From Bryobacteraceae bacterium CoA2 C42 (GTDB taxonomy: Bacteria > Acidobacteriota > Terriglobia > Bryobacterales > Bryobacteraceae), in contig JAINDL010000096.1 in assembly GCA_019931245.1 (NCBI GenBank), positions 1 through 64,000 of the forward strand: 64,000 nucleotides of DNA, written 5' to 3'. Made by a program: the position numbers and the translations under genes. Positions 43,066-58,276 of this stretch are shown piece after piece; positions within the stretch are counted from its first letter, which is position 1; each line of letters begins with the position of its first letter. The notes beneath the pieces were generated by a model, which worked only from the letters and a program-made list of their open reading frames with translations, searched no databases and had not been told where the DNA came from.

Positions 43066-44822
43066 ACCGTCCTTGCCACCCTGTTCTGTATCGCCAGCCC
43101 CAAATTGATCCACTGCCAGATGTAGAAGCTGTTGTCCGGCTCGCCCCGCTGAAACTCCCGCCACGCCTGCGCCACCGCCCTGGCGTCCAACCACTCCCCC
43201 CGGTACTCCTCCACCGCCATCTCGATGCAGTCCCGCGCCCAGCGCCGCAGCGGTCCGGCTAGCCACTCCCGCTGCGGCGTCTGCACGGGCCGCTTCGGCG
43301 CCTCGACGATACCGCGCGGCGCCACCCGCCCCGCTATCTGACGCAGCATCCACTTGCCCGTTCCCCCGCGCACCTTCCGGTCCCCGGGCTGCCGCAGCGC
43401 CAGTTCAAACAAACGGTGGTCGAGAAACGGTTCGCGCAGTTCGGTTGAATACCGCATCGAAATCCGGTCGTTGAAGCGCAGCGCCCGCGGCAGCTTCGCA
43501 TAGCAGGCGTCCAGATATTGCCGGTTGCGCAACGCATCGGCAAACGCCGTCCGCGGCGCCAGTGGCTCGGCCAGCGCGCGAAACTCCGGCAGCAGACACT
43601 CCGGTCGCGTCGCCCGCGTCCGCGTCCCCTGCAGCATCGCCTCCCGCCCCGCGCCTGCCCCCGACTCGTTCGCCAACCCGGCGTAGTAGTCGTAGCCCGC
43701 CCACTGCTCATCCATCCCCTGCCCGTCCAGCAGCACCACCACCCCCCGCGCTCGCGCCTGTTGAAACAGCCCCGCGTAAGCCAGCGTCGGCAGCCCGCCA
43801 AACGGCCCGTCCGCGCTCGACTGCACCGCCGCGGCCAACTCCGGCACCTCCCGCGGCTGCAACCGGCTCACCACCCAACGGTGCCGCGTTTGCCCCAGCA
43901 TCTGCTCCACCCACGGCGTCTCGTCGTAACGGGCATCTCCCGTCACGTAGGTGAACGCCGTCACCTCGCTCCCCTCTCCGTGTTCCATCCCGTCCACCAG
44001 GCCAAGCAGCAGCGACGAATCGAGCCCCCCGCTGATATTGATCCCCACCGGCACATCGGAACGGAACCGCAGCGCCACCGACTCCCGCAGCAGCGCCGAG
44101 TACTCCTCTTCGACGACCTCCCCGCTCCGCCCGTCGAACTCCGGCCCCACGTGCTCGGCCAGATCGTACCAGCGCCGCACCCGCAGCCGCCCAGCCTGCC
44201 ACGTCATCAAATGACCCGGCGGCAGCGCCGTCACGCCCCGCGAAAACGTCTCCGCCGAATGGTCATGCAGCCCGTAGGTCAGATACGTACTCCACGCCCG
44301 CGCGTTCGCCTCCTCCTCCACCCCGGCCGCGTACAGCGCCCGCATCTCACTGGCCGCCAGCAGCGTTCCGTTCGGCCGCTGGTGGTAGTAAAGCGGCTTC
44401 ACGCCAAACCGGTCGCGCGCCGCAAACAGCCGCTGCTCCCGCTCATCCCACAACAGAAACGCGAACATCCCGATCAACCGGTCCAGGCACCCCTCGCCCC
44501 ACCGCTCCCACGCCGCCAGCACCACCTCCGTATCCGTCTGCGAACGGAAACCGTAACCGGCCAACTCCCCCGTCAACTCCCGGTAGTTGTAGACTTCGCC
44601 ATTGAAGACAATCCACAACGTGCCCGCCGCGTTCGACATCGGCTGCCGCCCCGCCTCGGACAGATCGAGAATGCTCAGCCGGTTATGCCCCAACCCCGCC
44701 GCGCCCCGCGGCGACACGTAAACCCCGCGCGTGTCCGGCCCCCGGTGCTCCTGGCTCAGCACCATCGCCACCAACTCCGTACCCGCCCAACCCTCTCCGA
44801 AAACTCCGGCGATTCCGCACAT
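43062..44822 (-). CDS. asnB: Asparagine synthase (glutamine-hydrolysing)-type amidotransferase
   Basis: A 586-residue protein with N-terminal glutaminase domain (MCGIAGVFGEG, catalytic C2, FNGEVYNYREL) and a synthetase domain with the PP-loop ISGGLDSSLLLG. YSTELREPFLDHRLFE is a conserved C-terminal motif. In polysaccharide loci such proteins often amidate the carboxyl group of a sugar acid (uronic or nonulosonic) rather than make asparagine. The start at 44822 has AAGGAG eight bases upstream. Confidence 0.85.
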   Translation of the reverse strand: MCGIAGVFGEGWAGTELVAMVLSQEHRGPDTRGVYVSPRGAAGLGHNRLSILDLSEAGRQPMSNAAGTLWIVFNGEVYNYRELTGELAGYGFRSQTDTEVVLAAWERWGEGCLDRLIGMFAFLLWDEREQRLFAARDRFGVKPLYYHQRPNGTLLAASEMRALYAAGVEEEANARAWSTYLTYGLHDHSAETFSRGVTALPPGHLMTWQAGRLRVRRWYDLAEHVGPEFDGRSGEVVEEEYSALLRESVALRFRSDVPVGINISGGLDSSLLLGLVDGMEHGEGSEVTAFTYVTGDARYDETPWVEQMLGQTRHRWVVSRLQPREVPELAAAVQSSADGPFGGLPTLAYAGLFQQARARGVVVLLDGQGMDEQWAGYDYYAGLANESGAGAGREAMLQGTRTRATRPECLLPEFRALAEPLAPRTAFADALRNRQYLDACYAKLPRALRFNDRISMRYSTELREPFLDHRLFELALRQPGDRKVRGGTGKWMLRQIAGRVAPRGIVEAPKRPVQTPQREWLAGPLRRWARDCIEMAVEEYRGEWLDARAVAQAWREFQRGEPDNSFYIWQWINLGLAIQNRVARTV

Positions 44823-44832
44823 CCCTCTCTCC

Positions 44833-45789
44833 TTATTGCCCGCCGCCCTGTCCCGCAATCCAGCGCGCCACCTTGCCCGCCAGAAACTCCTCGGTCCGCT
44901 CCATTGAGCTTCCGGTACACCCGCCGATATGCGGCGTCAGCAGCAGATTCCCATGCCCCCGCGCGTACCGCAGCAAGGGATGATCCCCCCCCACCGCATG
45001 CTCGTCCGCCAGCACGTCCAGCGCCGCTCCGCCCAGATGGCCGCTTCGCAGCGCCTCCAACAGCGCCTCTTCACGAATCACTTCACCCCGCGCCGTATTC
45101 ACCAGCCGCGCCCCCGGTCGCATCGCCGCCAACTCCGCCGCGCCCAGCAATCCCCTGGTCTCCGCCGTTAGATTCACGTGTACGCTCACCACTTCCGCCC
45201 GCCCCAGCAACTCCGCCATCCCCACCAACCGCACGTTCGGCGGCGCCGCCGCCCGCTCGACATACGGGTCGCACGCCAGCACCTCAGCCTCGAAAGCCGC
45301 CAGATAACGCGCCACCTGCTGCCCCAGCCGCCCCAAACCCACCAGGCCCACCGTGCTGCCATACAGCTCCCGGCCACGGAACCGGTCGCGGTCCCACCCG
45401 CCCCGCGGGGCCTGCGCCAGCGCCCCCGGCAGATCCCGCAGCAGCGCCAGCATTAAACCAATCGTCAACTCCGCCGTCGCCCGCACCGTCCGCAAGAACT
45501 CCGTCTCCCCCCGCAGGCTCAGGACGGCAATGCCGCGCCGCGCCGCCTCCTCCCCGTCAATGTGCGTCAGCCCCGTCGTCGGCGTCGCCACCGCCCGCAG
45601 CGACCGCCCGGCGTCCAGAATCTCCCGGTCAATCCGGTGCCGCAGCCGCACCCACAGCACCTCGTGCCCAGGCGCCAGCGCCACCAGCCCCGCGCGGTCC
45701 GCGTCGGCCCACGTCACCTCGCCCGCCCCCGCCAGAATCCCCGCCGCCGTAGCGGAGAACTCAGAAGACTCGGCCACCAGAATGCGCAT
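44833..45789 (-). CDS. D-isomer-specific 2-hydroxyacid dehydrogenase
   Basis: A 318-residue protein with the NAD-binding GLVGLGRLGQQVARYL loop, the catalytic arginine in NTARGEV, and the histidine in LLTPHIGGC. It belongs to the SerA/GyaR-like family that reduces or oxidises 2-hydroxy acids such as glycerate or 3-phosphoglycerate. It overlaps neuA by 29 bp, so it is part of the sugar-acid module. A link with the FkbH/ACP cassette, which in other systems uses a glycerate-derived group, is possible but not shown. Confidence 0.8.
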   Translation of the reverse strand: MRILVAESSEFSATAAGILAGAGEVTWADADRAGLVALAPGHEVLWVRLRHRIDREILDAGRSLRAVATPTTGLTHIDGEEAARRGIAVLSLRGETEFLRTVRATAELTIGLMLALLRDLPGALAQAPRGGWDRDRFRGRELYGSTVGLVGLGRLGQQVARYLAAFEAEVLACDPYVERAAAPPNVRLVGMAELLGRAEVVSVHVNLTAETRGLLGAAELAAMRPGARLVNTARGEVIREEALLEALRSGHLGGAALDVLADEHAVGGDHPLLRYARGHGNLLLTPHIGGCTGSSMERTEEFLAGKVARWIAGQGGGQ

Positions 45790-46489
45790 GCTCTTCCGCC
45801 TCGGCCAGCAGAAACTCCGCCAGCCGCAGATCAAACAGATCATCCACGTTGCACGACCGCTCCGGCGGCATCAGCCACGCCTGGCACCGTGCCCCCTTGA
45901 GCGAATGCTGCTCCATCAGGACGTCATGGCGCGTCAGGTAAATCGATCCGTCGCGCAGATACAGCTGCCGCAACTGCTGCCTCGGCTGCCCCTCAAACGC
46001 CTCGCCGAACGGCGGATCCTCCACCCATCCCTCACCATCGATGCTTTTCATCCGCGCCGGATGCCGCTCCCCCACCGCGCTGAACGAGATCACCGAGTCG
46101 GCCTTCGTCCGCTCGAGCAGCCCGATTGCCCCGTCAATGTCGGTGTCCCGCCGCAGCGGGTTGGTCGGCTGCAGCACCAGAATCGCATCGTAATGCTCCC
46201 CCTGCTCCTCGAGAAACCGCACCATGTGCTGCACCACCGGAATCGTCGGCGTTTCATCCCGCGCCAGCTCCGCCGGCCGCAGCACCGGCACCGCCAGCCC
46301 CAGCGCCTCGCCCATCCGCGCTATCTCCGGGTCATCGGTCGACAACACCACCCGCGCCAACCGCCGCGCCCGCAGCGCCGACTCCGCCGTGTACGCGAGC
46401 AGCGGCCGCCCGCCCACCGGCGCCAGATTCTTCCGCGGAATCCCCTTCGACCCGCCCCGCGCCGTCACTATCCCCAACACCGAAAGCAT
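45761..46489 (-). CDS. neuA: CMP-nonulosonate (acylneuraminate) cytidylyltransferase
   Basis: A 242-residue protein. GIVTARGGSKGIPRKNLAPV is the invariant CTP-binding loop, and LVLQPTNPLRRDTDID and LYLRDGSIYLTRHDVL are family motifs. It activates a nonulosonic acid with CTP in the cytoplasm to make the CMP-sugar donor. Together with neuB and neuC it defines a nonulosonic acid pathway. Whether the sugar is sialic, legionaminic or another isomer cannot be read from this gene. Confidence 0.92.
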   Translation of the reverse strand: MLSVLGIVTARGGSKGIPRKNLAPVGGRPLLAYTAESALRARRLARVVLSTDDPEIARMGEALGLAVPVLRPAELARDETPTIPVVQHMVRFLEEQGEHYDAILVLQPTNPLRRDTDIDGAIGLLERTKADSVISFSAVGERHPARMKSIDGEGWVEDPPFGEAFEGQPRQQLRQLYLRDGSIYLTRHDVLMEQHSLKGARCQAWLMPPERSCNVDDLFDLRLAEFLLAEAEEHAHSGGRVF

Positions 46490-46503
46490 CGCCTCGCCTC
46501 CCG

Positions 46504-47349
46504 CTACACAATCGACCCGGCTTTGGCCCGGAACCGCGCCTGCAGCGGAATGCTCCGGATGTAGCCGTACAGCAGCACTTCCCGCGCCGCCAGCCGCAAA
46601 GCCGCCCGCGGCGCGCTGATCAGCAGCGCCTTGAGCAGCTTCGGCAGCGTCGGACGCGGCAGCGGCCACGTCTCGCCCGTACTGCGGAATATTGCCCGCC
46701 GCTCCCGCGTCATGATCTGAATCGCCTCTACCATCCCCCGGCGCCGCATGTGCAGGTACATCGCCTCGGAGCTCACCACCACGTAGCCCCGCTTCATCAC
46801 TTCGCGCGCCCACAGCTTGTCCTCTACCGCCTCGAGCGTCTCATCAAACGGCACCTCCTCCCACAATCTGCGCCGAATCGCGCAGCCGCTTGCAATCGGG
46901 CCGTTCTCGACGATCGTGTACAGATCGAGCGGCCAGCGCAGCACCTTCTGCTCCGTCCAACTCTCCACGTCCCGCGTCTTGGACACCGTCGTGCACCGCA
47001 CTGCCGCCACCTGCGGATTGGTAAACTCCCGCAGCGCCGTCCGGAAGAACTCCCGGCCCAGCACCAGACTGTGCGAGCTGATGAAGAAGACAATCTCGCC
47101 CGAACACTCGCGCAGGCCCAGGTTCAGCGCCCGGCCGTAGGTGAAGTCCCCCCGGGCAATCGAAACCACCCGCGCCCCGCGCTGCTCGGCCATCTCGCGG
47201 CTCCCGTCGGTGGATTCATTGTCCACCACCACCACCTCCCGCGGCTGCACCGACTGCAGCGCGAAGGCGTCGAACACCTTACCCAGATACTCCGCCGCGT
47301 TCCGCGCGCGGATCACCACCGAAAACGTTGGCACACTCTGCGTATCCAC
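46504..47349 (-). CDS. Glycosyltransferase family 2
   Basis: A 281-residue GT-A enzyme. FSVVIRARNAAEYLGKVFDA and VVVVDNESTDGS form the nucleotide-sugar site, and AVEDKLWAREVMKRG matches the ED motif near the active site. I prefer a GTG start at 47349, 10 bp after the neuC stop and preceded by GGGGAGG; an ATG at 47373 inside the end of neuC is the alternative. Being between neuC and neuA, it could transfer the nonulosonic acid or the preceding sugar. Confidence 0.82.
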   Translation of the reverse strand: MDTQSVPTFSVVIRARNAAEYLGKVFDAFALQSVQPREVVVVDNESTDGSREMAEQRGARVVSIARGDFTYGRALNLGLRECSGEIVFFISSHSLVLGREFFRTALREFTNPQVAAVRCTTVSKTRDVESWTEQKVLRWPLDLYTIVENGPIASGCAIRRRLWEEVPFDETLEAVEDKLWAREVMKRGYVVVSSEAMYLHMRRRGMVEAIQIMTRERRAIFRSTGETWPLPRPTLPKLLKALLISAPRAALRLAAREVLLYGYIRSIPLQARFRAKAGSIV

Positions 47350-47359
47350 AACTCCTCCC

Positions 47360-48571
47360 CTATCGACTCGCATAACCACCGCGCACCGCCATCCCGCCCG
47401 CCTTCGGCAAGTCGTAGATGTAGTGCAGCCGCTTCTGCACAAACGGCGTCAGGTTCACGAGCGCCGCGGCAATCCGCCGCGCCACCCGCCCATCGCCATA
47501 CAACTCGCTCGGCGCATACCGGCCATGCGCCAGCTGACGGCTGATCGTCTCCGCCACCTCGTCCGCCGCCGGCGCCGCCCGCACGACGTGCTCGTCCGTC
47601 TCCCGGCCCTCCTGCCGCTCTCCCACCAGCACCACCGGCGTGCCGAAGTAGCCCGCATCCCGCACAAAACTGCTCGAGTTCCCCACCGCGCACGCCGCTC
47701 GCCCCAGCACGGCCAGGTACTCCTCCGGCATCAGATTCGTAATCGTCCGCAGCCACACCGGCGCGTTCTGATCCCGAAACACCCGGATCGACTTGCTGAT
47801 CTGCTCACTGCCCGCGTCAATGTTCGGCCACAGCAGCACCGCCGGCATCGCAATCCTCCCGAGCGCCTCCAGCAGTTCGCTCATCTGCCGCATCTCGCCC
47901 CCGTAGCGCGTCGTCGTCGGATGAAAAATCACCAGCAAAAATGGCTTCTCCGTATCAATCCAGGCGCCGCTGCCGGCCGCGTTGACGATATCGGCCCGCA
48001 GCGAACGGTCCATCTCCCGCGCCAGGTCGCTGCCCGGACACCCCACCCCCAGAATGCTCTCCGGCCGCTCTCCCATCCGCACCAGATACTCGGCCGCCCG
48101 GGCCGTGCTCGGAAAATGAAACTGCGACAGCTTGCTGATCGCATGCCGCGCGCTCTCATCAATCGAACCCGACACCTCGCCGCCCTGGATATGAAACAGG
48201 CAGAGGTTCATGTACGCCGCCGCAATCGCCGCCGCCAGCGCCTCGTAACGGTCCCCGATCAGCAGGACGACATCCGGCTGCAGCCGCTGAAATTCGCTCG
48301 CGAACTCCACAACGCCAAACCCCACCGACTTCGCCATCGTCGACAGCTTCGACCCTTCAAGTTCAATGTGAATCTCCCCATCCACGGGAAAGCCATCCTG
48401 CCGGACGTTCTGCACCGGATAGCCGAACCGCTCGAGAACCATGGTTCCCGCCGCCACCACCACCATCTCCAGCTCCGGCCGCTCCGCCATCGCCGTCATC
48501 ACCGGCTTCATCCGCCCGTAGTTGGCCCGGTCCACCAGCACCACGCAAACCCTTCTTCGTTTCATCGCCAT
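47360..48571 (-). CDS. neuC: UDP-N-acetylglucosamine 2-epimerase (hydrolysing)
   Basis: A 403-residue protein of the hydrolysing 2-epimerase family. DRANYGRMKPVM, GDRYEALAAAIAA, HIQGGEVSGSIDESARHAIS and GNSSSFVRDA are characteristic. It releases ManNAc, or the corresponding 4-amino-6-deoxy form, from UDP-sugar for condensation by NeuB. The start has GGAGGAGG seven bases upstream. Specificity for UDP-GlcNAc (sialic acid) against the bacillosamine derivative (legionaminic acid) is undecided; the presence of a dehydratase and aminotransferase in the locus leaves both open. Confidence 0.9.
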   Translation of the reverse strand: MAMKRRRVCVVLVDRANYGRMKPVMTAMAERPELEMVVVAAGTMVLERFGYPVQNVRQDGFPVDGEIHIELEGSKLSTMAKSVGFGVVEFASEFQRLQPDVVLLIGDRYEALAAAIAAAYMNLCLFHIQGGEVSGSIDESARHAISKLSQFHFPSTARAAEYLVRMGERPESILGVGCPGSDLAREMDRSLRADIVNAAGSGAWIDTEKPFLLVIFHPTTTRYGGEMRQMSELLEALGRIAMPAVLLWPNIDAGSEQISKSIRVFRDQNAPVWLRTITNLMPEEYLAVLGRAACAVGNSSSFVRDAGYFGTPVVLVGERQEGRETDEHVVRAAPAADEVAETISRQLAHGRYAPSELYGDGRVARRIAAALVNLTPFVQKRLHYIYDLPKAGGMAVRGGYASR

Positions 48572-48587: not shown

Positions 48588-49499
48588 TCAAGCCGCCTGC
48601 CTGCAATCGACGCGCTGCAGCGCGTAACAATCCGCCCCCACCCCGTTCCGCCCCGCCTCCGTGCTGAAGGCGCAGCAGAAATCGAGCTGCCGCAGCCGCT
48701 CCACCGCCGCCCCGGTAAACGAGTCCCGCTTCCCGTACGGATAGCTGAACGGCGTCTGCGGCTGCGGCAGCATCCGCAAATCGAGAATCCGCCGGCACTC
48801 CGCCAGGTCCCGCTCCATCTCCGCCGCCGGCATCGCCGCCAGCGCCTCGTGCCGGTGCGTATGTCCCCCCAGCACCATCCCGCCCATCTGCATCCGCCGC
48901 GCCTCCTCCCAGCTCACGTACAACTCCCGGGCAAACGCCGCCTCCGCGCCAAACTCCTCGGCGAACAGCTCCGCCACCACCGGCTCCCGCGCCGCCGCCG
49001 GCAACCGAAAATTGAACCGGTACTTGAACGCCGCCGCCTCCGGCGTATCCCACGGATAGGTCCGGGCCGCCGCCTCCCCGTCCACGGCCGGCAGCGCCAC
49101 GCCCATCCGCCCCGCCCGTTCGACAAACCGCCGCTGCCACTCGGCCAGCCCCAACTGCGCCGTCAAAAAGTGGTTCTTATGCACCGTCGCCACCACCTGC
49201 TCCTCCATGCAGCCCGTCACCAGGAAGAACAGCCCCTGAATCCCCCGGTCCACCAGCACCGGCGTCACCTCCCGGTAGTGGTCCTTCACCCCATCATCAA
49301 ACGTCAACAAACACAGCGGCCGCCGCCCCCGGTACTCGCCCCGCAGCAGCGCTAGCGCCGATTCGAGCGTCGCCATCTCATAACGGCTCCGCAACGCGTC
49401 CACCTGACGGCAGAACAGATCCGCTTCCAGGCTCTTCAGCGCGGGAAACGGGTTCCGCCCCGCCCCTCGCACATAGTGGTACATCACAACCAACAGCAT
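48588..49499 (-). CDS. Polysaccharide deacetylase (NodB-type) with long insert
   Basis: A 303-residue protein. CLLTFDDG (D68, D69) and GGHTHRHEAL (H213, H217) are the metal and catalytic motifs, and FSYPYGKRD is motif 3. The spacing between the first two motifs is about 140 residues, much longer than usual, so a substrate-specific insert is present. No signal peptide is seen. The ATG at 49499 with AGGAG seven bases upstream is preferred to 49517. Confidence 0.82.
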   Translation of the reverse strand: MLLVVMYHYVRGAGRNPFPALKSLEADLFCRQVDALRSRYEMATLESALALLRGEYRGRRPLCLLTFDDGVKDHYREVTPVLVDRGIQGLFFLVTGCMEEQVVATVHKNHFLTAQLGLAEWQRRFVERAGRMGVALPAVDGEAAARTYPWDTPEAAAFKYRFNFRLPAAAREPVVAELFAEEFGAEAAFARELYVSWEEARRMQMGGMVLGGHTHRHEALAAMPAAEMERDLAECRRILDLRMLPQPQTPFSYPYGKRDSFTGAAVERLRQLDFCCAFSTEAGRNGVGADCYALQRVDCRQAA

Positions 49500-49530
49500 C
49501 GGCTCACTCCTATCCATTCCCACGCCATCC

Positions 49531-50676
49531 CTAATTCGGCCGGTCCTGATCCGAATCCGCCTTCGTCCAGTACCAGGGGCACTCTGGCCCCGCCACGCAC
49601 GCCGGCCGCGCAAACTGCACCAGCATCGCGCTCATAATGCCGCCCCGCTTCCCGTCGAGCGGCTGAAACCGCGTCGGCGCCCACTCCCCGTCCTCCACCG
49701 CCGCCGCTGGCGTCATCCCCCCCTCCGCCAGCAACCGCCCCGTCCGCCCGTGGTAGCCGTAGTAATCAGCCCCCAGCGCCCCGGCCTCCCGCGCCTGGTG
49801 AAGAAACGCCGCCAGTAACTCCCGCCCGTTGTCCTCCGACGCCGGCAGAAACTCCACCAGCCGCGCCATCCGGTCCACCGGCATCCGCCCCTCCACCGTC
49901 TCCCGGTAGATCGTCTCGAGTCGCCAAACGGCCAACCCCGTCCGTTCGCCTGCCGCCACCGTCACCACCCGGTAAGCAAACAGCGGATGGTCGAGGTACC
50001 GCCACCGCAGAAACTCCGCGTCCCGGGCCGCGCCCAGCGTCTCGGCGGCCATGGCCGGCCAGTTCCGCTCGTCCCACTCGGCCGGATCGAACTGCGTCCG
50101 CGCCTCCGCCCGCGCCTCCGGCATCACCCGCGGCTCCAAAGCCGCCGCCAGCGCCGCCGCCCGCTCCGGCTCCCAGTCCGGATGCGCCAGCCCCACCAGC
50201 TGGGCCATCCGCCCGGCCGCCCCCGGAAACACCACCATCTGCCGCGGAATGTCCGCGAGCACCTCGCCCCGCAGCACCCGGTAAATCGCCGCCGTCGCCG
50301 GGTTGATGCCAAAGGCCACCGTAATGTCGTAGGGCTGCTCCTGCCGTCCCGCGCTCGCCCGGAACATACTTAGCAGCTGCAGCGCCGTGGACCCCCGGCG
50401 GTGGTCCGGACGCACAACGTAGTTAGTAATCCAAACGCCCTGCTTACGCTCGCCAAATAAGTTAAACGCAAAGGGAACGCCGCCCAGAATGCCCACCAGT
50501 TCTCCGTCGCTCTCCGCCACGGCCATCGTGCTCCCGCCCCTCGCCGCCCGCCCGAACGACCAACGGTACAGGTCCTCGCGCCGGCAATAGATATGGTTCG
50601 CCGCCCAGTAATCGTTGAGAAACCGGCTCACCTCCGGATACTCCGCCAGGCCCGCGTAACGAAACGCAATACTCAT
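49531..50676 (-). CDS. GNAT-family acyltransferase
   Basis: A 381-residue protein whose first 150 residues form a GNAT domain; NYVVRPDHRRGSTALQLLSM contains the acyl-CoA/acyl-ACP pyrophosphate loop. The rest looks like a second, divergent half. It follows the ACP gene by 3 bp, so it may move an acyl group from the ACP to an amino sugar of the glycan. ATG at 50676 is chosen; a GTG three bases earlier is equally open. Confidence 0.65.
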   Translation of the reverse strand: MSIAFRYAGLAEYPEVSRFLNDYWAANHIYCRREDLYRWSFGRAARGGSTMAVAESDGELVGILGGVPFAFNLFGERKQGVWITNYVVRPDHRRGSTALQLLSMFRASAGRQEQPYDITVAFGINPATAAIYRVLRGEVLADIPRQMVVFPGAAGRMAQLVGLAHPDWEPERAAALAAALEPRVMPEARAEARTQFDPAEWDERNWPAMAAETLGAARDAEFLRWRYLDHPLFAYRVVTVAAGERTGLAVWRLETIYRETVEGRMPVDRMARLVEFLPASEDNGRELLAAFLHQAREAGALGADYYGYHGRTGRLLAEGGMTPAAAVEDGEWAPTRFQPLDGKRGGIMSAMLVQFARPACVAGPECPWYWTKADSDQDRPN

Positions 50677-50679
50677 CAC

Positions 50680-50964
50680 TCAACCCTCCCCTAACTTACC
50701 CGCCACCATCCGCGCAATCCGCGCCATCGAGAGTAACTCCTCCATCTCCTCGGGCGAGAACTGAATGCCCCACTCCTGCTCAAGCGCCAGCACCAGATTC
50801 AGGTGATTCAACGAATCCCAGCTGCCGATCGAGTCCGGCGAACTCTCCTCCGTCAACCCATCAACCGGCACCGCGAACAGATCGGCCGCGATCTGCCGCA
50901 CCCGATCCATCACCGCCAGCAGCCCGTCCTGGTCCACCTCTTCAACAGGCGATCGATTTCCCAT
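50680..50964 (-). CDS. Acyl carrier protein
   Basis: A 94-residue carrier protein with the phosphopantetheine serine S51 in GSWDSLNHLNLVLALEQE and the acidic four-helix pattern of ACPs. It is too diverged and too embedded in the locus to be the fatty-acid ACP. It overlaps the FkbH gene by 23 bp, which suggests that FkbH loads it. A phosphopantetheinyl transferase must come from elsewhere. Confidence 0.88.
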   Translation of the reverse strand: MGNRSPVEEVDQDGLLAVMDRVRQIAADLFAVPVDGLTEESSPDSIGSWDSLNHLNLVLALEQEWGIQFSPEEMEELLSMARIARMVAGKLGEG

Positions 50965-52819
50965 ACTCCCCCTCCCCTCCGAGCGTTGCCCGCATCCAGC
51001 GCGGGCAGACAAGCGAACTGTTCGCCACCTCCAGACGCCACCGCGCCCCCGCTTCGCCCGTCTCCACCAGCGCAAACTCGTGCGCGGCGTAAAACTCCCG
51101 CGCCGGCCCGTTCTTGGCCGTCGGCACAAACCAGCCCTCAATCCACTGCAACCCCAAATGCCGCCCGTAGCGCAGCAGCAGCGCCATCATCGCCGTCTCC
51201 ACGGTCCGCCCGATCACTCGGCAGCTCATCAGCATCGTCTCGATCACGCCTACCCCCGACGCGTGCCGGAACACAATCACCCCCACAATCCCGTTATCCC
51301 CGTAGCGGTCCCGTACCGCCACCTGAAACACGGTCGTCCCCCGCCGCCGCGCCAGTTCATGGATCTCGGCCTCGCTGTAGCGCCGCCCCGTCAGGTTGAA
51401 CTGATTGGTCTTCTGCGTCAACTGCGCCACCCGCTGCTCGTGCGCCGGCTCGACCCGCGTCATCACCACTTCCTGCGCGAGCGATTCATAAAACTCCTCC
51501 ACCGTCCCAAACTGCCGCTGTGCCGTGGCCCGCTCCTTCTGCGCCCGGTACAGTTCGCCCCGCACCCGGTCCTCCTCGCTCACCGCCAGCCGTTCAAACA
51601 CCGGATGCCGCCGCACCGCCGCCGCGTATCCCACCGGCTCCGGCGGCAGTTCAATCACCGTGACCTCGGGCAGCTCCCGCCGCACCCGCTCGCACTCCAC
51701 CGGACTGTCGTCCACCAGCGCCAGCGCCTCCAGCCCCACGTTCAACTCCCTGGCAATCTCCCGCAGATTCGTCGCCTTGTCCTTCCAGTTGATCCGCTTC
51801 GCCGCAAACGCCCCGCTCCGCAGCAACATGCCCGGATGACTGTCGATCGCCCCCACCGCCTCCGCCTCGTCATTCTTGCTGCATACCGCCAGCAGCAGCC
51901 CCCGCCGCGAGAAGTCCACCAAGGTCTGCTGCAGCGCCCGGTAATGCGCCCCCGGATGTTCCAAACCCACTTGAATCCCGTCCGGTCCGTCCTCGCCCAG
52001 CACCCCGCCCCACAGCGTATTGTCGAGGTCCGTCACCACCACCTTCACCCCCCGCCCCGCCAACGGCACCAGATAGCGCAGCCACTCGCTCGCCAGCACC
52101 GGCTGACAGTCGGCCCGCATCGGCAGCCGCACCAGCAGCCACTTCCGCTCATCGTGCCAGTGCACCCGCCCCTGGCTCGCCACCAGCCGGTCATACCCCA
52201 ACACATAGACCCCCGGCCACCGGCCCGCCAGACGCCGCAGCCCCTGATTGATCTCCTGCACCGCCGCCGCCTGCCCCTCTGGAGACTGCCCGTCCAGCAC
52301 CCCCCAACTCGGGTGCACCGGCTCTTCGAGCGAATGCAGAATCAGGTCCGCCCGGCTGAAGCTCCGAAACCGCTCCACCAGCATCGTGTAGTGCTCCACG
52401 ACCTCCGCCACCACCGCCGCCAACCCCGCCCCCGGCGCCCCATCCTCCCACAGGCGCGGCGCGATATCCCGCGTCTGCACCGCCACAATCACCGTGTCCG
52501 GCCGGAACCGGTACAACTCGCTCTCCCCTGCCAGAACCTCCTGCATCGTCGCTCCCAGCGGCCCCACCCCCACCGTCAGTTCCAGCCCCGCCAGCACCCC
52601 GCCCGCCCGCAGCAGCGGCACCAGCGGCTCCACAGTGAACGACCGCAAAAAGTACACCCGCCACGGCCGGCCCGGCAACGCCTCTCGCCAGCGGCCCGCG
52701 CATTCCATCACGTAGTTCGCCGACGCCACCGTTGGCTGCGCCCGCCACATCGCCTCCACGGCCGACCGCGCCTCCCCGTATCGGCCCGCCGCCAAGGCCG
52801 CCTCAATCGACTCTCGCAT
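50942..52819 (-). CDS. FkbH-like HAD-superfamily acyl-loading enzyme
   Basis: A 625-residue protein with an N-terminal SGNH/AT-like region, a HAD phosphatase domain and a C-terminal GNAT-like domain. HAD residues are D264-x-D266 in VVTDLDNTLWGG, CSKND (313-317) and DDSPVE (370-375). In polyketide systems FkbH takes D-1,3-bisphosphoglycerate, removes phosphate and loads glyceryl onto an ACP. The ACP follows directly, and the MaoC gene upstream overlaps by 17 bp. A glyceryl-ACP product is thus likely by analogy; its use in a glycan locus is inferred. Confidence 0.82.
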   Translation of the reverse strand: MRESIEAALAAGRYGEARSAVEAMWRAQPTVASANYVMECAGRWREALPGRPWRVYFLRSFTVEPLVPLLRAGGVLAGLELTVGVGPLGATMQEVLAGESELYRFRPDTVIVAVQTRDIAPRLWEDGAPGAGLAAVVAEVVEHYTMLVERFRSFSRADLILHSLEEPVHPSWGVLDGQSPEGQAAAVQEINQGLRRLAGRWPGVYVLGYDRLVASQGRVHWHDERKWLLVRLPMRADCQPVLASEWLRYLVPLAGRGVKVVVTDLDNTLWGGVLGEDGPDGIQVGLEHPGAHYRALQQTLVDFSRRGLLLAVCSKNDEAEAVGAIDSHPGMLLRSGAFAAKRINWKDKATNLREIARELNVGLEALALVDDSPVECERVRRELPEVTVIELPPEPVGYAAAVRRHPVFERLAVSEEDRVRGELYRAQKERATAQRQFGTVEEFYESLAQEVVMTRVEPAHEQRVAQLTQKTNQFNLTGRRYSEAEIHELARRRGTTVFQVAVRDRYGDNGIVGVIVFRHASGVGVIETMLMSCRVIGRTVETAMMALLLRYGRHLGLQWIEGWFVPTAKNGPAREFYAAHEFALVETGEAGARWRLEVANSSLVCPRWMRATLGGEGEYGKSIAC

Positions 52820-53240
52820 CCCCGCCCTCCCCGGCCAGTTTCACCGTCCCCCGGCCCTCCATCACCGTCGCCCCGTCCTGATTCGTCGCCCGCACCTCCA
52901 CCACCACGCTCCCCGTCCCCTCCGACTTATGCGCAATCCATAGCCGCAAATGCACCGTATCGCCCACAAACACCGGCGCCCGCCACTGAAATCGCTGCTC
53001 GGCCCACAACGCCCCCGGCCCTGGCAGCCGCATCCCGATCAGCGTCGAAACGTAACTGCCAAGCAGCAGCCCGTGCGCCACGCGCCGCCCAAACTCCGTC
53101 GCCCGGGCGAATCCCTCGTCCACGTGCAGCGGGTTGAAGTCCCCGCTCACTTCGGCGAACGCATCCACCTCGGCCGCACCGATCACCTTCGTCAGCACCG
53201 CCTCCTGCCCCACCATCAGACCCGCGAAACGCCCGTTCAT
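52803..53240 (-). CDS. MaoC-like dehydratase/hydratase
   Basis: A 145-residue hot-dog fold protein with the hydratase 2 motif AFAEVSGDFNPLHVDEGFA; D34, N36 and H39 are the expected catalytic positions. It is similar in size to PhaJ-type enoyl hydratases that act on CoA or ACP thioesters. It sits between neuB (ATGA overlap) and fkbH, so it probably processes the ACP-bound acyl group. MaoC-like proteins are not usual in capsule loci. Confidence 0.8.
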   Translation of the reverse strand: MNGRFAGLMVGQEAVLTKVIGAAEVDAFAEVSGDFNPLHVDEGFARATEFGRRVAHGLLLGSYVSTLIGMRLPGPGALWAEQRFQWRAPVFVGDTVHLRLWIAHKSEGTGSVVVEVRATNQDGATVMEGRGTVKLAGEGGDARVD

Positions 53241-54283
53241 GCTCGCCCCTGCAACTCCCGCTGCACCGGCGCGGCGAAATCCTCCTCGACCAAAAACTGA
53301 CCCCGGCTTACCGCCCGCGCCAGCCGCTGCCCCACCACACGCCCCAACAATTCCGCCGGCAGCCCCGTCCCCGGCTTCCGCAAACCCAGATGCCAGTCGT
53401 TCAACACCGTTCCCGCCGGCAGGTCCGCCTCCGCCACAATGCTCTTCGTAAACAGCCGCCGCAAATCCCGCAGCTCCCGGCTCATCAGGTCCTTGTCCAC
53501 CGGGTTCGCCATCGCTGTCTCAAGAAACCGCACACCGTCCACCAACTGCCGCAGCTCCTCCGTCGTCAACGAACTCGCCACGTCCGGGCCAAAACACTCC
53601 CGGCTAAAAGTCACGTGCACCTCCACCACCTCCGCCCCCAGCGCCACCGCCGCCAGCGAGGGATAAATCGTCCCGGAATGGTCTGATAACCCCACCGCGC
53701 ACCCGTACCGCCGCCGGAACTCCCCAAGCACATTCACCCCCACCTTCGCCGCCGGACACGGATACACCGACGTGCACTGCAGCAGCACATACGGCAGCCG
53801 CTCCCGCTCCAATCGCTCCACGGCCCCGTCGATCTCCGGCCACGAACTCATCCCCGTCGAAACATAAACCGGCAGCCCCGTCTCCGCCATCAGCGGAAAC
53901 AACTGCGGATTGCCGATCTCGCCCGAAGCCACCTTCCAGGCGTCCACGCCCACGCGCCGCAGCATCTCGACGGCGCGCTTGGAAAACGGCGAGCTCAAAA
54001 ACCGCAGCCCCTTGCTCACCGCGTGGTCCCGCAGCTCCTTCCACTGCGTCTCGCTGAACTCCATCCGCTGCCAGTAGTCGTAGCGCGTGGCGTCCTGCCG
54101 GCTGAAGCGCACCCGCCACGTCTCGTAGCTCGAACTTTCGGCGTCGGCATAGTGCGTCTGAAACTTGATGGCATCCGCGCCCGCCCGCGCGGCCGCGTCA
54201 ATATAGGCGTGCCCCGTGCCCAGGCTGCCATCGTGCGCCTGCGCCACCTCCGCCATCAGCAAACATGCTGCGTTACCCTGCAT
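53237..54283 (-). CDS. neuB: Nonulosonic acid (N-acetylneuraminate-type) synthase
   Basis: A 348-residue protein with the NeuB barrel (LMAEVAQAHDGSLG, ADAIKFQTHYAD, WKVASGEIGN, GLSDHSG) and a C-terminal SAF/antifreeze-like domain (ADLPAGTVLNDWHLGLRKPG). It condenses phosphoenolpyruvate with an N-acylmannosamine-type sugar. The start has GGAGGG four bases upstream. NeuB, PseI and LegI share this architecture; the type cannot be fixed by eye. Confidence 0.9.
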   Translation of the reverse strand: MQGNAACLLMAEVAQAHDGSLGTGHAYIDAAARAGADAIKFQTHYADAESSSYETWRVRFSRQDATRYDYWQRMEFSETQWKELRDHAVSKGLRFLSSPFSKRAVEMLRRVGVDAWKVASGEIGNPQLFPLMAETGLPVYVSTGMSSWPEIDGAVERLERERLPYVLLQCTSVYPCPAAKVGVNVLGEFRRRYGCAVGLSDHSGTIYPSLAAVALGAEVVEVHVTFSRECFGPDVASSLTTEELRQLVDGVRFLETAMANPVDKDLMSRELRDLRRLFTKSIVAEADLPAGTVLNDWHLGLRKPGTGLPAELLGRVVGQRLARAVSRGQFLVEEDFAAPVQRELQGRA

Positions 54284-55142: not shown

Positions 55143-55148
55143 CTCCTT
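55143..55148 (-). promoter_or_regulatory. Shine-Dalgarno that decides a TTG start
   Basis: AAGGAG, seven bases before the TTG of the permease gene. Its first bases are part of the TAA stop of the dehydratase gene, so ribosomes ending there can restart directly. Confidence 0.7.
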
Positions 55149-57066
55149 ACGCCGGGTGCCCATGCCGCGCCTCGGCCAAAATCTCGCTATACCGCCCCGA
55201 AGGCTGATACTCCGGCACCAGATCCTTCAACAAACCCAGCAGCTGCGCCTCGTCCCGCCGCGCAATCGCCCCCCGCACCTGCTCCATCCACTCCCGCAGC
55301 CGCCCCCGCGCCAGCCGCTGCCCCCGGTAGATCTTGATCTTGTTGTGGTGCGTCGGCTGAAAATCTTCGCCCGCCGCCGTCAGCTCTTCATAGAGCTTCT
55401 CGCCCGGCCGCAGCCCCGTGAACCGGATCTCAATATCCACGCCCGGCGTCTTACCCGACAGCCGCGCCATGTTCCGCGCCAGATCGACTATCTTCACCGG
55501 CTCCCCCATGTCGAGCACGAAGATCTCGCCCCCCTTGCCCATGGCCGACGCCTGCAGCACCAACTGCACCGCCTCGGGAATCGTCATGAAGTAGCGCTGC
55601 ATCTCCGGATGCGTCACCGTAATCGGCCCCCCGGCCGCAATCTGCTTTCGAAACAGCGGAATGACGCTCCCGTTGCTCCCCAGCACGTTGCCAAATCGTA
55701 CCGCCACATACTCCGTCCGACCCTCCTGCGTCGCCCGCGCGGTCACCAGCAGTTCGGCCGCCCGCTTGGTCAAACCCATGATGTTGGTCGGGTTGACGGC
55801 CTTATCGGTCGATATCATCAGAAACCGCGCGACCCCGTGCCGCGCCGCGGCCTCCACTAAGTTGTAAGTGCCGATCACGTTATTCCGCACGGCCTCAAAC
55901 AGATGGCACTCCATCATCGGAACGTGCTTGTACGCCGCCGCGTGAACCATCACCTCCACCCCGTGCTCCCGCACCAGCTCATCCAGCCGCTGCGCGTCGC
56001 AGATGTCCGCCACCGCCGGCGCCACCCGCTCCCCCGGCAAGCGCTCGAGCAGCTCGAGATGAATCCGGAACAGATCGCTCTCGGCCTGGTCCAGCAGAAC
56101 CAGCCGCCGAGGCCCGTACCCCGCCACCTGCCGGCAGATCTCCGACCCAATCGATCCCCCCGCCCCCGTCACCAGGACACACCGCCCCTCTACCTGCTCC
56201 CGGATCATCGCCTCGTCCAGTTCCACCGGCTCCCGCCCCAGCAGATCCACCACCGCCACTTCTCGCACCCGGCTCATCAGCACCCGGCCCGTCAGCAACT
56301 CCCCCACCCCGGGCATCGTCTGGACCGCCACCCCCGCCGCCCGGCAGTTCGCCACCGCCTCCCGCATCTGCTCCGCCCTCGCCGAAGGCATCGCAATCAG
56401 AATCTCCGCCACCGGCCGGTGCGACCGCCGCGCCAGGTCCACCAACAGCGCCGCCTCCCGCCCCGTACCCAGCACCGTCGCCCCCGCCAGCGTCGCACCC
56501 TGCTTGGCCGGCGAATCATCGAGCAGCCCCACCACCTGATACCCCAGCGATGGATTCGACCGAATCTCCTTGGCAATCGCCAAACCCGCCTGCCCCGCCC
56601 CGTAAATCAACACCCCCTTCGCCGGACCCCGCGCCTGCCACTCCCGCGCCAAACCCTCCCGGTACAGCCGCACCGAAAACCGCAGCCCCGCCGTCGCCAG
56701 AAAACACAACAGAAAATCGATCCCCAGAATCGACCGCGGGAACCCCGCCCCCAGCCCCCATACCGCCACTCCCGCCAGCGCCGCCGACGCCAGCACGTTC
56801 GTCCCCAGCAGCCGCCGCAAATCCACCAGCCCCGCGTACTGCCATCCCCCCCGGTCATGCCGCCGCAGCACAAACACCGGCAGCTTCACCACCACCGCCA
56901 GCCACACCGCCATCGACAACACCGGCGCTGCCTCCCGCGGCAGCGAATACTCAAAACGCAGCAGGAACGCCAGCACCATGGCAACCACAATCAGCAACCC
57001 GTGCAAACCCGCCAGCAATAGCCGCCGGTGCACCCGTACCAACCGCATCATTCCGCTCTTTTTCAT
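55147..57066 (-). CDS. Membrane-bound nucleotide-sugar 4,6-dehydratase (WbpM/CapD/PglF type)
   Basis: A 639-residue protein with four N-terminal membrane helices, a first Rossmann-like domain (GAGQAGLAIAKEI) and a C-terminal SDR domain. VLVTGAGGSIGSEICRQV binds NAD, and STDKAVNPTNIMGLTKRAAE is the modified catalytic triad region of this family, with Met in the usual Tyr place. It converts UDP-GlcNAc to the 4-keto-6-deoxy sugar. The aminotransferase directly upstream should take the product. Confidence 0.9.
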   Translation of the reverse strand: MKKSGMMRLVRVHRRLLLAGLHGLLIVVAMVLAFLLRFEYSLPREAAPVLSMAVWLAVVVKLPVFVLRRHDRGGWQYAGLVDLRRLLGTNVLASAALAGVAVWGLGAGFPRSILGIDFLLCFLATAGLRFSVRLYREGLAREWQARGPAKGVLIYGAGQAGLAIAKEIRSNPSLGYQVVGLLDDSPAKQGATLAGATVLGTGREAALLVDLARRSHRPVAEILIAMPSARAEQMREAVANCRAAGVAVQTMPGVGELLTGRVLMSRVREVAVVDLLGREPVELDEAMIREQVEGRCVLVTGAGGSIGSEICRQVAGYGPRRLVLLDQAESDLFRIHLELLERLPGERVAPAVADICDAQRLDELVREHGVEVMVHAAAYKHVPMMECHLFEAVRNNVIGTYNLVEAAARHGVARFLMISTDKAVNPTNIMGLTKRAAELLVTARATQEGRTEYVAVRFGNVLGSNGSVIPLFRKQIAAGGPITVTHPEMQRYFMTIPEAVQLVLQASAMGKGGEIFVLDMGEPVKIVDLARNMARLSGKTPGVDIEIRFTGLRPGEKLYEELTAAGEDFQPTHHNKIKIYRGQRLARGRLREWMEQVRGAIARRDEAQLLGLLKDLVPEYQPSGRYSEILAEARHGHPA

Positions 57067-57099: not shown

Positions 57100-58266
57100 T
57101 TAACGCCGCCACCGCTCCACAATCTCCCCCACCGCACCCGCCACCCGGTCCACCTGCCCCTCCGTCATCGCCGGATACAGCGGCAGCGAAAACATCCGCT
57201 CGTACAACGACACCGCCCGCGGACAGGGATACGCCGCCCCCAGCCCCTCATACACCGGATGCAGCGGCACCGGTATGAAATGCACGCTGATGCCGATTCG
57301 CCGCTCCCGCAACTCGTTCAGAAACGCATCCCGCCCAATCGCGAGCCGCTCCGGCCGCAGCCGCAGAATATACAGGTGCCACGCGTGCCGCCCCTCCACC
57401 GCCTCCGGTGGACACTCCACCTCCGGCATCCCCGCAAACGCCCGCTGATATCGCTCCGCCAGCTCTCGCCGCCGCTCCGTAAACCGCTCGATCTTTTTCA
57501 ACTGCTCCACCCCGATCGCCGCCTGCAGGTCGCTCAGGTTGTACTTGAATCCCGCCTCCAGCACCTGGTAAAACCACGTCCCCTTCTCCCCGTATCGGTT
57601 CCAGGCGTCCCGGTTCAGCCCGTGCAGCGCCAGCGCCTTCATCCGCGCCAACAGCTCCGGCCGGTTCGTCGTCACCATCCCACCCTCGCCCGTCGTCAGA
57701 TTCTTCGTCGCGTAAAAACTGTAGGCCACCGCATCGCTCGCCGAAGCCCCATCAGCCCCCAGGTGCCGCCCCCGGTAGTAGGTGCCCACCGCGTGCGCCG
57801 CGTCCTCCAACACCCGCAGCCCATGCCGCCCCGCCAGATCCCACAACTCCTCCATCCGGCAAGGCAACCCCGCCAGATGCACCGGCAGCAGCACCTTCGT
57901 CCGCGGCGTAATCCGCGCCGCCACCGAAGCCGGGTCGATGTTTCCCGTCTCGTCCACGTCCGCCAGCACCGGACTCGCCCCCGTGTGCACAATCGCGTGC
58001 ACCGTCGAACAGAACGTCAACGGCGTCGTAATCACCTCATCCCCCGGCCCCACCCCCAGCGCCGCCAGCGCCAGGTGCAGCGCCGCCGTGCACGAGTTCA
58101 GCGCCAGCGCATGCCGAGCCCCCGTGTAGGCCTCGAAGTCCCGTTCGAACGCCGCCGTCCGCGCCCCCGTCGTCAGCCATCCGGAGCGCATCGTTTCCAC
58201 TACGGCGCCTATCTCCTCCTCTCCAATCTCCGGCAGATTGAAGGGCAAATACGAAGCTTCTAACAT
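57100..58266 (-). CDS. DegT/DnrJ/EryC1-family sugar aminotransferase
   Basis: A 388-residue PLP enzyme. The internal aldimine lysine is K188 in SFYATKNLTTGEGGM, and D155 in LEDAAHAVG binds the pyridine ring. PEIGEEEIGAVVETMRSGW is the usual N-terminus. It most likely aminates C4 of the 4-keto-6-deoxy sugar made by the neighbouring dehydratase, giving a UDP-4-amino-4,6-dideoxy sugar. Start at 58266 has GGGAG five bases upstream. Confidence 0.88.
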   Translation of the reverse strand: MLEASYLPFNLPEIGEEEIGAVVETMRSGWLTTGARTAAFERDFEAYTGARHALALNSCTAALHLALAALGVGPGDEVITTPLTFCSTVHAIVHTGASPVLADVDETGNIDPASVAARITPRTKVLLPVHLAGLPCRMEELWDLAGRHGLRVLEDAAHAVGTYYRGRHLGADGASASDAVAYSFYATKNLTTGEGGMVTTNRPELLARMKALALHGLNRDAWNRYGEKGTWFYQVLEAGFKYNLSDLQAAIGVEQLKKIERFTERRRELAERYQRAFAGMPEVECPPEAVEGRHAWHLYILRLRPERLAIGRDAFLNELRERRIGISVHFIPVPLHPVYEGLGAAYPCPRAVSLYERMFSLPLYPAMTEGQVDRVAGAVGEIVERWRR

Positions 58267-58276
58267 AGTCACTCCC

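What the first reader, a model, noticed from the sequence alone, without database searches (positions are those of the whole stretch)
49531..54283. ACP-based acyl cassette (MaoC, FkbH, ACP, GNAT) inside a nonulosonic acid locus
neuB, maoC, fkbH, acp and a GNAT gene are joined by overlaps of 4, 17 and 23 bp and a 3-bp gap, followed by a deacetylase and neuC. FkbH and a dedicated ACP in polyketide pathways load a glyceryl group from 1,3-bisphosphoglycerate. Here the same set seems to feed a glycan: a glyceryl or dehydrated acyl group made on the ACP and moved by the GNAT onto an amino sugar, after a deacetylase frees the amine. N-acyl variants of sialic-type acids are known, but I do not know of an FkbH/ACP/MaoC set described for this.
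Basis: partly seen in the sequence, partly recalled or inferred. Interest (0 to 1): 0.7.

Follow-up and report, generated by a model that had tools for sequence, protein, structure and literature searches.

The report
Glycerate-type acyl cassette for a sialic-like sugar
A conserved set of genes in soil Acidobacteria appears to take a small acid from sugar breakdown, hold it on a carrier protein and attach it to a sialic-acid-like surface sugar, offering candidate enzymes for a decoration whose genes have been missing.

Summary
Of 14 loci with this GNAT (window plus 13 GTDB contigs), ACP, MaoC and deacetylase are in 14, fkbH in 12, orthologous neuB and neuC in 12. In 11 of 14, MaoC is fused to an SDR domain whose catalytic Tyr is lost in all 11; in the window's clade the SDR is gone. 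Similar functions recur in Proteobacteria as two adjacent fusions, acyltransferase-FkbH and MaoC-SDR-ACP (5 plasmid records), 2 of them in nonulosonic acid loci. This ties FkbH, MaoC, ACP and an N-acyltransferase into one module. Most likely it makes a glycerate-derived acyl-ACP and places it as an amide on a nonulosonic acid or its precursor. N-glyceroyl nonulosonic acids are already known (Campylobacter; Tannerella, where the gene 'remains elusive'), and C. jejuni has an fkbH-domain gene in its locus, so the product class is not new. I found no description of this gene set in the open-licence papers searched. 'Acryloyl' is chemically unlikely: dehydrating glyceryl gives pyruvoyl. Acyl identity and acceptor are unproven, and two loci lack the cassette fkbH.

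The parts
53237..54283 (-). neuB, nonulosonic acid synthase (348 aa, NeuB + SAF domains)
   Evidence: PF03102 221.5 bits; TIGR03569 283.7, below its 399.65 cut-off; PDB best SiaC, then PseI
52803..53240 (-). maoC, PhaJ-like hydratase/dehydratase, 145 aa, without the SDR domain found in most relatives
   Evidence: PF01575; PDB best (R)-specific enoyl-CoA hydratase 1iq6, E 1.6e-27; Asp/His dyad in 14 of 14
50942..52819 (-). fkbH, HAD-IIIC plus GNAT-like C-terminal region, 625 aa
   Evidence: TIGR01686 286.1 bits over cut-off; DLDNTLW and SCR motifs; model matches 3slr, TMt 0.84
50680..50964 (-). acp, stand-alone acyl carrier protein, 94 aa, WDSL serine
   Evidence: PF00550 24.7 bits; WDS in 14 of 14 loci
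49531..50676 (-). GNAT-family N-acyltransferase, 381 aa, with an invariant C-terminus DSDQDRPN
   Evidence: PF13527 and PF00583; alignment of 14; AlphaFold2 pLDDT 85.7, PDB best N-myristoyltransferases and tandem-GNAT proteins
48588..49511 (-). NodB-type deacetylase (start not refined)
   Evidence: PF01522 64.5 bits; TFDD motif in 14 of 14, GGH[TS] motif matched in 12 of 14, not in L064 and L065; present after the GNAT in 14 of 14
47360..48571 (-). neuC, UDP-sugar hydrolysing 2-epimerase
   Evidence: TIGR03568 338.4 bits over cut-off
45761..46510 (-). neuA/pseF-like CMP-nonulosonate cytidylyltransferase (start not refined)
   Evidence: PF02348 68.4; TIGR03584 131.4, below its cut-off 205.7
44833..45789 (-). 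D-2-hydroxyacid dehydrogenase, travels with neuA
   Evidence: PF02826 177.1; in 12 of 12 loci with the orthologous neu genes
43062..44840 (-). asnB-type amidotransferase (start not refined)
   Evidence: TIGR01536 367.8 over cut-off
57100..58272 (-). DegT-family sugar aminotransferase
   Evidence: PDB best ArnB; PseC 371.6, below 423.5
55147..57066 (-). CapD-type nucleotide-sugar 4,6-dehydratase
   Evidence: best NCBIfam PseB 188.0, below its cut-off

Best explanation
A dedicated acyl-transfer module for a nonulosonic acid. FkbH takes a glycerate unit (in studied homologues from 1,3-bisphosphoglycerate) and loads it on the 4'-phosphopantetheine of the small ACP. MaoC, a PhaJ-type hydratase/dehydratase, may then act on the ACP-bound acyl group (glyceryl to pyruvoyl by loss of water, or as an editing step). 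The tandem-GNAT acyltransferase moves the group from ACP to an amine of the nonulosonic acid or of its UDP- or free-sugar precursor, giving an N-glyceroyl (or N-pyruvoyl/N-lactoyl) amide. The neighbouring deacetylase probably frees that amine first. Shown: gene content, order, conservation, catalytic motifs, fusion evidence. Inferred: acyl identity, acceptor, order of steps.
For: Tight operon. Conserved neuB-maoC-fkbH-acp-GNAT-deac-neuC in relatives. Motifs of MaoC and ACP kept in 14 of 14, FkbH motifs in 12 of the 12 that have it. Of the 30 FkbH loci returned for the order (window and its cassette relatives included), 21 have an ACP on the same strand in the short fetch, 19 of them directly downstream. 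Independent fusions: acyltransferase(Antibiotic_NAT)-FkbH next to MaoC-SDR-ACP in 5 plasmid records; in Maritalea and Sinorhizobium sp. RAC02 they lie in a locus with neuB and a DUF4910-type protein. FkbH proteins are proposed to load glyceryl on ACP in polyketide pathways. Published N-glyceroyl nonulosonic acids: 5-(2,3-di-O-methylglyceroyl) Pse in C. jejuni, whose strain 12664 has cj1302 (fkbH domain) as a pseudogene and lacks that sugar; Pse5Am7Gra in Tannerella, with no candidate gene for Gra.
Against: In 2 of 14 loci (L059, L063) the fkbH slot is empty while MaoC-SDR, ACP, GNAT and deacetylase stay; those genomes hold only distant FkbH paralogues (192-198 bits against 835-1114 for cassette FkbH). 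C. jejuni strain 12661 also lacks the dimethylglyceroyl sugar, yet outside maf and DUF2920 genes the gene it uniquely lacks is cj1301, not cj1302, so that correlation is weak. L065 keeps the cassette with a divergent, displaced neu set and L064 has no neuB in the slot, so the acceptor need not be this nonulosonic acid. FkbH-ACP also occurs with O-acyltransferases (MBOAT) and in polyketide contexts. Six of six plasmid neuB loci opened from the neuB side had no fkbH, MaoC, ACP, GNAT or deacetylase relative within 9 kb. In the Maritalea and Erwinia fusions Pfam did not report the ACP part, which rests on my own HMM and the WDS motif, and the Erwinia MaoC match is below its cut-off. No chemistry was measured.
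Confidence: 0.6

Rival explanations
1. The module acylates another amino sugar of the same polysaccharide (for example the 4-amino sugar made by CapD and DegT) and is only a neighbour of the nonulosonic acid genes.
For: L065 and L064 keep maoC-SDR-fkbH-acp-GNAT-deac without the orthologous neuB beside it; FkbH-ACP pairs occur in other loci without a neuB relative.
Against: neuB and neuC flank the cassette in 12 of 14 loci; two proteobacterial examples of the fused set also sit in nonulosonic acid loci.
Confidence: 0.2
2. The acyl group is (R)-3-hydroxybutyryl: the PhaJ-like MaoC makes it from crotonyl thioester, and FkbH is accessory or serves another ACP.
For: MaoC is closest in the PDB to an (R)-specific enoyl-CoA hydratase; two loci keep MaoC-SDR, ACP and GNAT without fkbH; N-hydroxybutyryl nonulosonic acids are known.
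Against: fkbH is in 12 of 14 loci, directly before the ACP; none of the cassette genes is a ketosynthase; the SDR lacks its catalytic Tyr in 11 of 11, so it should not make 3-hydroxyacyl groups by the usual route; proteobacterial fusions join FkbH to the acyltransferase.
Confidence: 0.13
3. The FkbH-ACP-MaoC genes serve a small secondary metabolite or lipid and are in the polysaccharide operon by accident.
For: FkbH-ACP occurs in polyketide and tetronate clusters.
Against: No ketosynthase or other polyketide gene among the operon proteins scanned; overlapping genes and conserved neighbours across several genera.
Confidence: 0.05

Closest known systems
Campylobacter jejuni di-O-methylglyceroyl pseudaminic acid pathway (cj1302 fkbH-domain gene, Cj1295)
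   Same: fkbH-domain gene in a nonulosonic acid locus, N-glyceroyl product, proposed removal of acetyl before acylation (PMC7099621 and PMC3068675, passages)
   Different: The window has a NodB-type deacetylase where C. jejuni has an aminopeptidase-like protein; MaoC and a GNAT of another kind are present; no methyltransferase inside the cassette. C. jejuni sequences were not compared here.
Tannerella forsythia Pse5Am7Gra
   Same: N-glyceroyl nonulosonic acid, with an asnB-type gene in the cluster (PMC6120980 and PMC6388019, passages)
   Different: No gene for glyceroyl identified there; the genome was not available to me
Maritalea and Sinorhizobium sp. RAC02 NAT-FkbH / MaoC-SDR-ACP / DUF4910-type loci
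   Same: Same four functions in a locus with neuB
   Different: Functions fused; acyltransferase part is Antibiotic_NAT (Pfam, tested in Maritalea); the Maritalea SDR has YxxxK; only about 28-37% identical to the window's FkbH and MaoC
Glycerate-utilisation and methoxymalonyl operons of tetronate and FK520-type polyketides
   Same: FkbH plus stand-alone ACP proposed to make glyceryl-ACP (PMC7489565, passages)
   Different: There glyceryl-ACP goes to polyketide assembly; no neuB, GNAT or deacetylase in the passages read
Aeromonas flagellin glycosylation islands, group IIIC; group II and enterobacterial islands with acp and fabG
   Same: In an A. [quoted passage not shown] ACP and 3-oxoacyl-ACP reductase genes in other islands (PMC7874193 and PMC4875605, passages)
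   Different: No FkbH reported in the passages read

Membership tests
FkbH (TIGR01686) | score over curated cut-off | tested here: met
   286.1 against 146.65 bits
FkbH (TIGR01686) | HAD motif DxDNTLW and a conserved Cys (SCR) in the C-terminal region; the role of this Cys is my inference | tested here: met
   D264-W270 and C533 invariant in 18 aligned proteins
FkbH (TIGR01686) | loads glyceryl from 1,3-bisphosphoglycerate on ACP | not testable with these tools
   needs an in vitro assay
MaoC / (R)-specific enoyl hydratase | fold family and Asp...His dyad (dyad role recalled) | tested here: met
   PF01575 74.4 bits; 1iq6 E 1.6e-27; dyad 14 of 14
MaoC / (R)-specific enoyl hydratase | any NCBIfam model cut-off | tested here: not met
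   best 116.1 against 282
Acyl carrier protein | Pfam cut-off and phosphopantetheine serine | tested here: met
   24.7 against 20.8; WDS in 14 of 14; NCBIfam cut-offs not reached
Classical SDR ketoreductase (fused domain in 11 relatives) | catalytic Ser, Tyr and Lys (YxxxK) | tested here: not met
   Tyr replaced in 11 of 11: F 7, A 2, L 1, V 1; Ser kept in 9 and Lys in 10 of 11
NeuC hydrolysing epimerase | TIGR03568 cut-off | tested here: met
   338.4 against 235.9
NeuB N-acetylneuraminate synthase (TIGR03569) | equivalog cut-off | tested here: not met
   283.7 against 399.65; PF03102 is met
C. jejuni-type glyceroyl nonulosonic acid pathway | fkbH-domain gene plus amide hydrolase in a nonulosonic acid locus | tested here: inconclusive
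   fkbH present; the hydrolase candidate is a Polysacc_deac_1 protein, not aminopeptidase-like; no C. jejuni sequence compared

The most novel reading that the evidence does not exclude
A carbon route from glycolysis straight to a surface glycan: FkbH makes glyceryl-ACP, MaoC dehydrates it on the carrier to pyruvoyl-ACP, and a tandem-GNAT acyltransferase places an N-pyruvoyl (in the window's clade, which has lost the SDR) or, in relatives whose SDR keeps YxxxK such as Maritalea, an N-lactoyl group on a nonulosonic acid. The general set (FkbH, ACP, MaoC(-SDR), N-acyltransferase, amide hydrolase) would be the missing machinery for C3-acyl nonulosonic acids.
Probability: 0.22. Interest if true: 0.8.

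Novelty: new variant of a known kind. Interest (0 to 1): 0.6.

Why it matters
N-glyceroyl nonulosonic acids are reported in C. jejuni and Tannerella forsythia, but the Tannerella authors wrote in 2018 that a candidate gene for glyceroyl 'remains elusive'. This cassette names a testable enzyme set, and a related set recurs in Proteobacteria with another acyltransferase and another putative amide hydrolase. It also extends FkbH/ACP chemistry from polyketides to glycans and gives a genomic signature for C3-acylated sialic-like sugars.

Tried and rejected
Rejected: that the order is chance (conserved in relatives). Thought unlikely: that the GNAT is a plain LegH/PseH acetyltransferase, since phmmer found no significant PDB relative (best E 0.29) and the model resembles N-myristoyltransferase and tandem-GNAT folds. 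Rejected: that the fused SDR is an ordinary ketoreductase.

Considered but not settled: that the GNAT acylates the 4-amine made by DegT, as in legionaminic acid synthesis (pathway recalled), so that the acyl ends on N7; the deacetylase present in 14 of 14 argues instead for freeing an existing amide. The scaffold (neuraminic or legionaminic type) is not decided; NeuC over its cut-off makes a pseudaminic type less likely (inference).

Led nowhere: the phage collection gave 2 unannotated FkbH records; FkbH with O-antigen, MaoC with pseudaminic, and MaoC with O-antigen/ACP/N-acyl/aminosugar returned no papers; a literature search for lactyl-making FkbH modules gave a listing in which no paper held the word lactyl, and none was opened for that question. 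Tannerella and Campylobacter genomes were not reached: I saw no tool route to them by name. The GTDB contig scan used only two peptide patterns, so the clade limit may be too narrow. In a 396-genome phylum sample only the window matched the GNAT model strongly; the other 33 matching genomes had weak partial hits (best E 1.3e-10).
Full report
Observation. The cassette lies on the minus strand. neuB 54283-53237 overlaps maoC by 4 bp, maoC overlaps fkbH by 17 bp, fkbH overlaps acp by 23 bp, and acp is 3 bp before the GNAT ATG. A deacetylase and neuC follow. Upstream are degT, capD and an ABC permease; downstream are a glycosyltransferase, a neuA-like gene, a D-2-hydroxyacid dehydrogenase, an asnB-type amidotransferase and an ABC ATPase. 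The family names hold at NCBIfam cut-offs for FkbH, NeuC and asnB, and at Pfam cut-offs for NeuB, MaoC, ACP, GNAT and the deacetylase. NeuB does not reach the NCBIfam equivalog cut-off.

Synteny. A FkbH search over 150 genomes of the order matched 87; by score most of these are other FkbH proteins. Twenty stretches were fetched: the best FkbH loci of 18 other genomes, a second FkbH locus of one of them, and a paralogue in the window's own genome. Seven of the 20 held maoC-fkbH-acp-GNAT-deacetylase, six of these with neuB and neuC; the seventh, L041, is on a 9.6-kb contig and has no neuB in the slot. Over window plus 13: GNAT 14 by construction, ACP 14, MaoC 14, deacetylase 14, fkbH 12, orthologous neuB before maoC 12, neuC after the deacetylase 12, D-2-hydroxyacid dehydrogenase 12, asnB 10. 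Exceptions: L059 and L063 lack fkbH (confirmed with an HMM); L065 has a divergent neu set (32-34%) downstream of the cassette; L064 (same contig as L041) has no neuB. L057 is a near-identical relative of the window (97-99%; ACP 84%).

The lost SDR. In 11 of 14 loci MaoC is the N-terminal half of a MaoC-SDR fusion in one frame (Pfam on three of them). The SDR catalytic Tyr is replaced in all 11 (F 7, A 2, L 1, V 1); Ser is kept in 9, Lys in 10 of 11, and the MaoC Asp/His dyad in 14 of 14. In the window, L054 and L057 the SDR is absent, consistent with one loss in that clade after decay of the domain (inference; no tree was built). So the step that matters here is probably MaoC, not a reduction.

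Independent fusions. On plasmids, an acyltransferase-FkbH fusion lies next to a MaoC-SDR-ACP fusion in 5 records: Maritalea, Sinorhizobium sp. RAC02, two Erwinia rhapontici and Rahnella. These are the only records in which either query matched over at least 80% at E 1e-20. Pfam was run on two of the five: in Maritalea and one Erwinia it finds Antibiotic_NAT in the first protein and MaoC plus adh_short in the second, the Erwinia MaoC below its cut-off. The ACP part was found with my HMM (Maritalea E 4.5e-10, Erwinia 3.8e-4, RAC02 9.2e-8), not by Pfam. The second Erwinia copy is in several pieces. In Maritalea the pair is followed by a DUF4910/DUF2172 protein and neuB. In RAC02 a relative of that protein (63%) follows the pair, and neuB and a neuA-like gene lie within about 6 kb upstream. 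The inspected Erwinia locus is not a nonulosonic acid locus; Rahnella and the second Erwinia were not inspected. The Maritalea, Niveispirillum and Erwinia SDRs have YxxxK. So a distant group also ties FkbH, MaoC, ACP and an N-acyltransferase together.

FkbH alone is not specific. Of ten FkbH plasmid loci opened, two are polyketide-like, two pair ACP-FkbH with MBOAT, one is an exosortase polysaccharide locus, one has methyltransferase and VOC neighbours, one has a WcbI-type acyltransferase and a MaoC-SDR protein, and three are the fusion loci. Of six plasmid neuB loci opened from the neuB side, none has a relative of FkbH, MaoC, ACP, GNAT or the deacetylase within 9 kb.

Structures. The GNAT model (pLDDT 85.7) best matches N-myristoyltransferases and tandem-GNAT acetyltransferases at TM about 0.5. 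That fits an N-acyltransferase but does not name the donor. The FkbH model (pLDDT 87.6) matches BF1531 over its N-terminal and HAD parts, and other hits are GNAT proteins.

Literature (passages only). FkbH with 1,3-bisphosphoglycerate giving glyceryl-ACP is the proposal in tetronate and methoxymalonyl pathways (PMC7489565); an FkbH-containing module in oocydin was thought non-functional (PMC4552970). C. jejuni carries 5-(2,3-di-O-methylglyceroyl) pseudaminic acid, and Cj1295 was proposed to remove the C5 acetyl first (PMC3068675). An fkbH-domain gene, cj1302, lies in that locus; strain 12664 has it as a pseudogene and lacks the dimethylglyceroyl sugar, but strain 12661 also lacks the sugar and uniquely lacks cj1301 instead (PMC7099621). 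Tannerella has Pse5Am7Gra and the gene for Gra 'remains elusive' (PMC6120980; PMC6388019). Aeromonas group IIIC islands include a strain with a GNAT, an acyl dehydratase and a de-N-acetylase around neuC (PMC7874193); acp and fabG genes occur in other flagellin islands. My searches for this set: FkbH with nonulosonic gave one paper, the C. jejuni one above; FkbH with O-antigen, MaoC with pseudaminic, and MaoC with O-antigen, ACP and N-acyl gave none; FkbH with polysaccharide, glycosyltransferase and ACP gave one on pathway reconstruction, seen only in the listing. Only open-licence papers were searched.

Mechanism and limits. Best reading: glycerate-derived acyl-ACP, possibly dehydrated by MaoC to pyruvoyl, moved by the GNAT to an amine freed by the deacetylase. 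Shown: anatomy, conservation, motifs, fusions. Inferred: acyl group, acceptor, order. The two loci without fkbH are the strongest point against FkbH as the only loader; their genomes hold only distant FkbH paralogues.

Noticed in passing
window 44833-45789 and 43062-44840: A D-2-hydroxyacid dehydrogenase overlaps neuA and is found in 12 of 12 loci with the orthologous neu genes but was not detected in L065; an asnB-type amidotransferase was found in 10 of 14. The Tannerella authors suggest an asnB gene for acetamidino groups.
   Followed up: partly
L040, L048, L051: Other FkbH loci in the order combine FkbH, ACP, a VOC-type protein and a weak deacetylase relative without a neuB hit; L040 also has a protein with a GNAT match below the Pfam cut-off (VOC tested by Pfam in L040 and L048 only).
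   Followed up: partly
L038:9048-12214, L045:2053-5253, L046:7607-10837: fkbH-acp followed by a 355-409 aa protein with no Pfam match that may be a further acyltransferase.
   Followed up: partly
window 49531-49557: The GNAT C-terminus DSDQDRPN is invariant in all 14 aligned sequences although low in model confidence, suggesting a conserved tail with a role.
   Followed up: no
L114:8152-12056: Erwinia plasmid pERA53 carries the acyltransferase-FkbH and MaoC-SDR-ACP fusions in a locus with a nucleotidyltransferase-aminotransferase fusion and a CDP-alcohol phosphatidyltransferase, so the module may also serve another product.
   Followed up: partly
L053:6658-8607: A second FkbH paralogue in the same genome (C150) sits before a 1011-aa protein, as in a relative (L052); no ACP was found there.
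   Followed up: no
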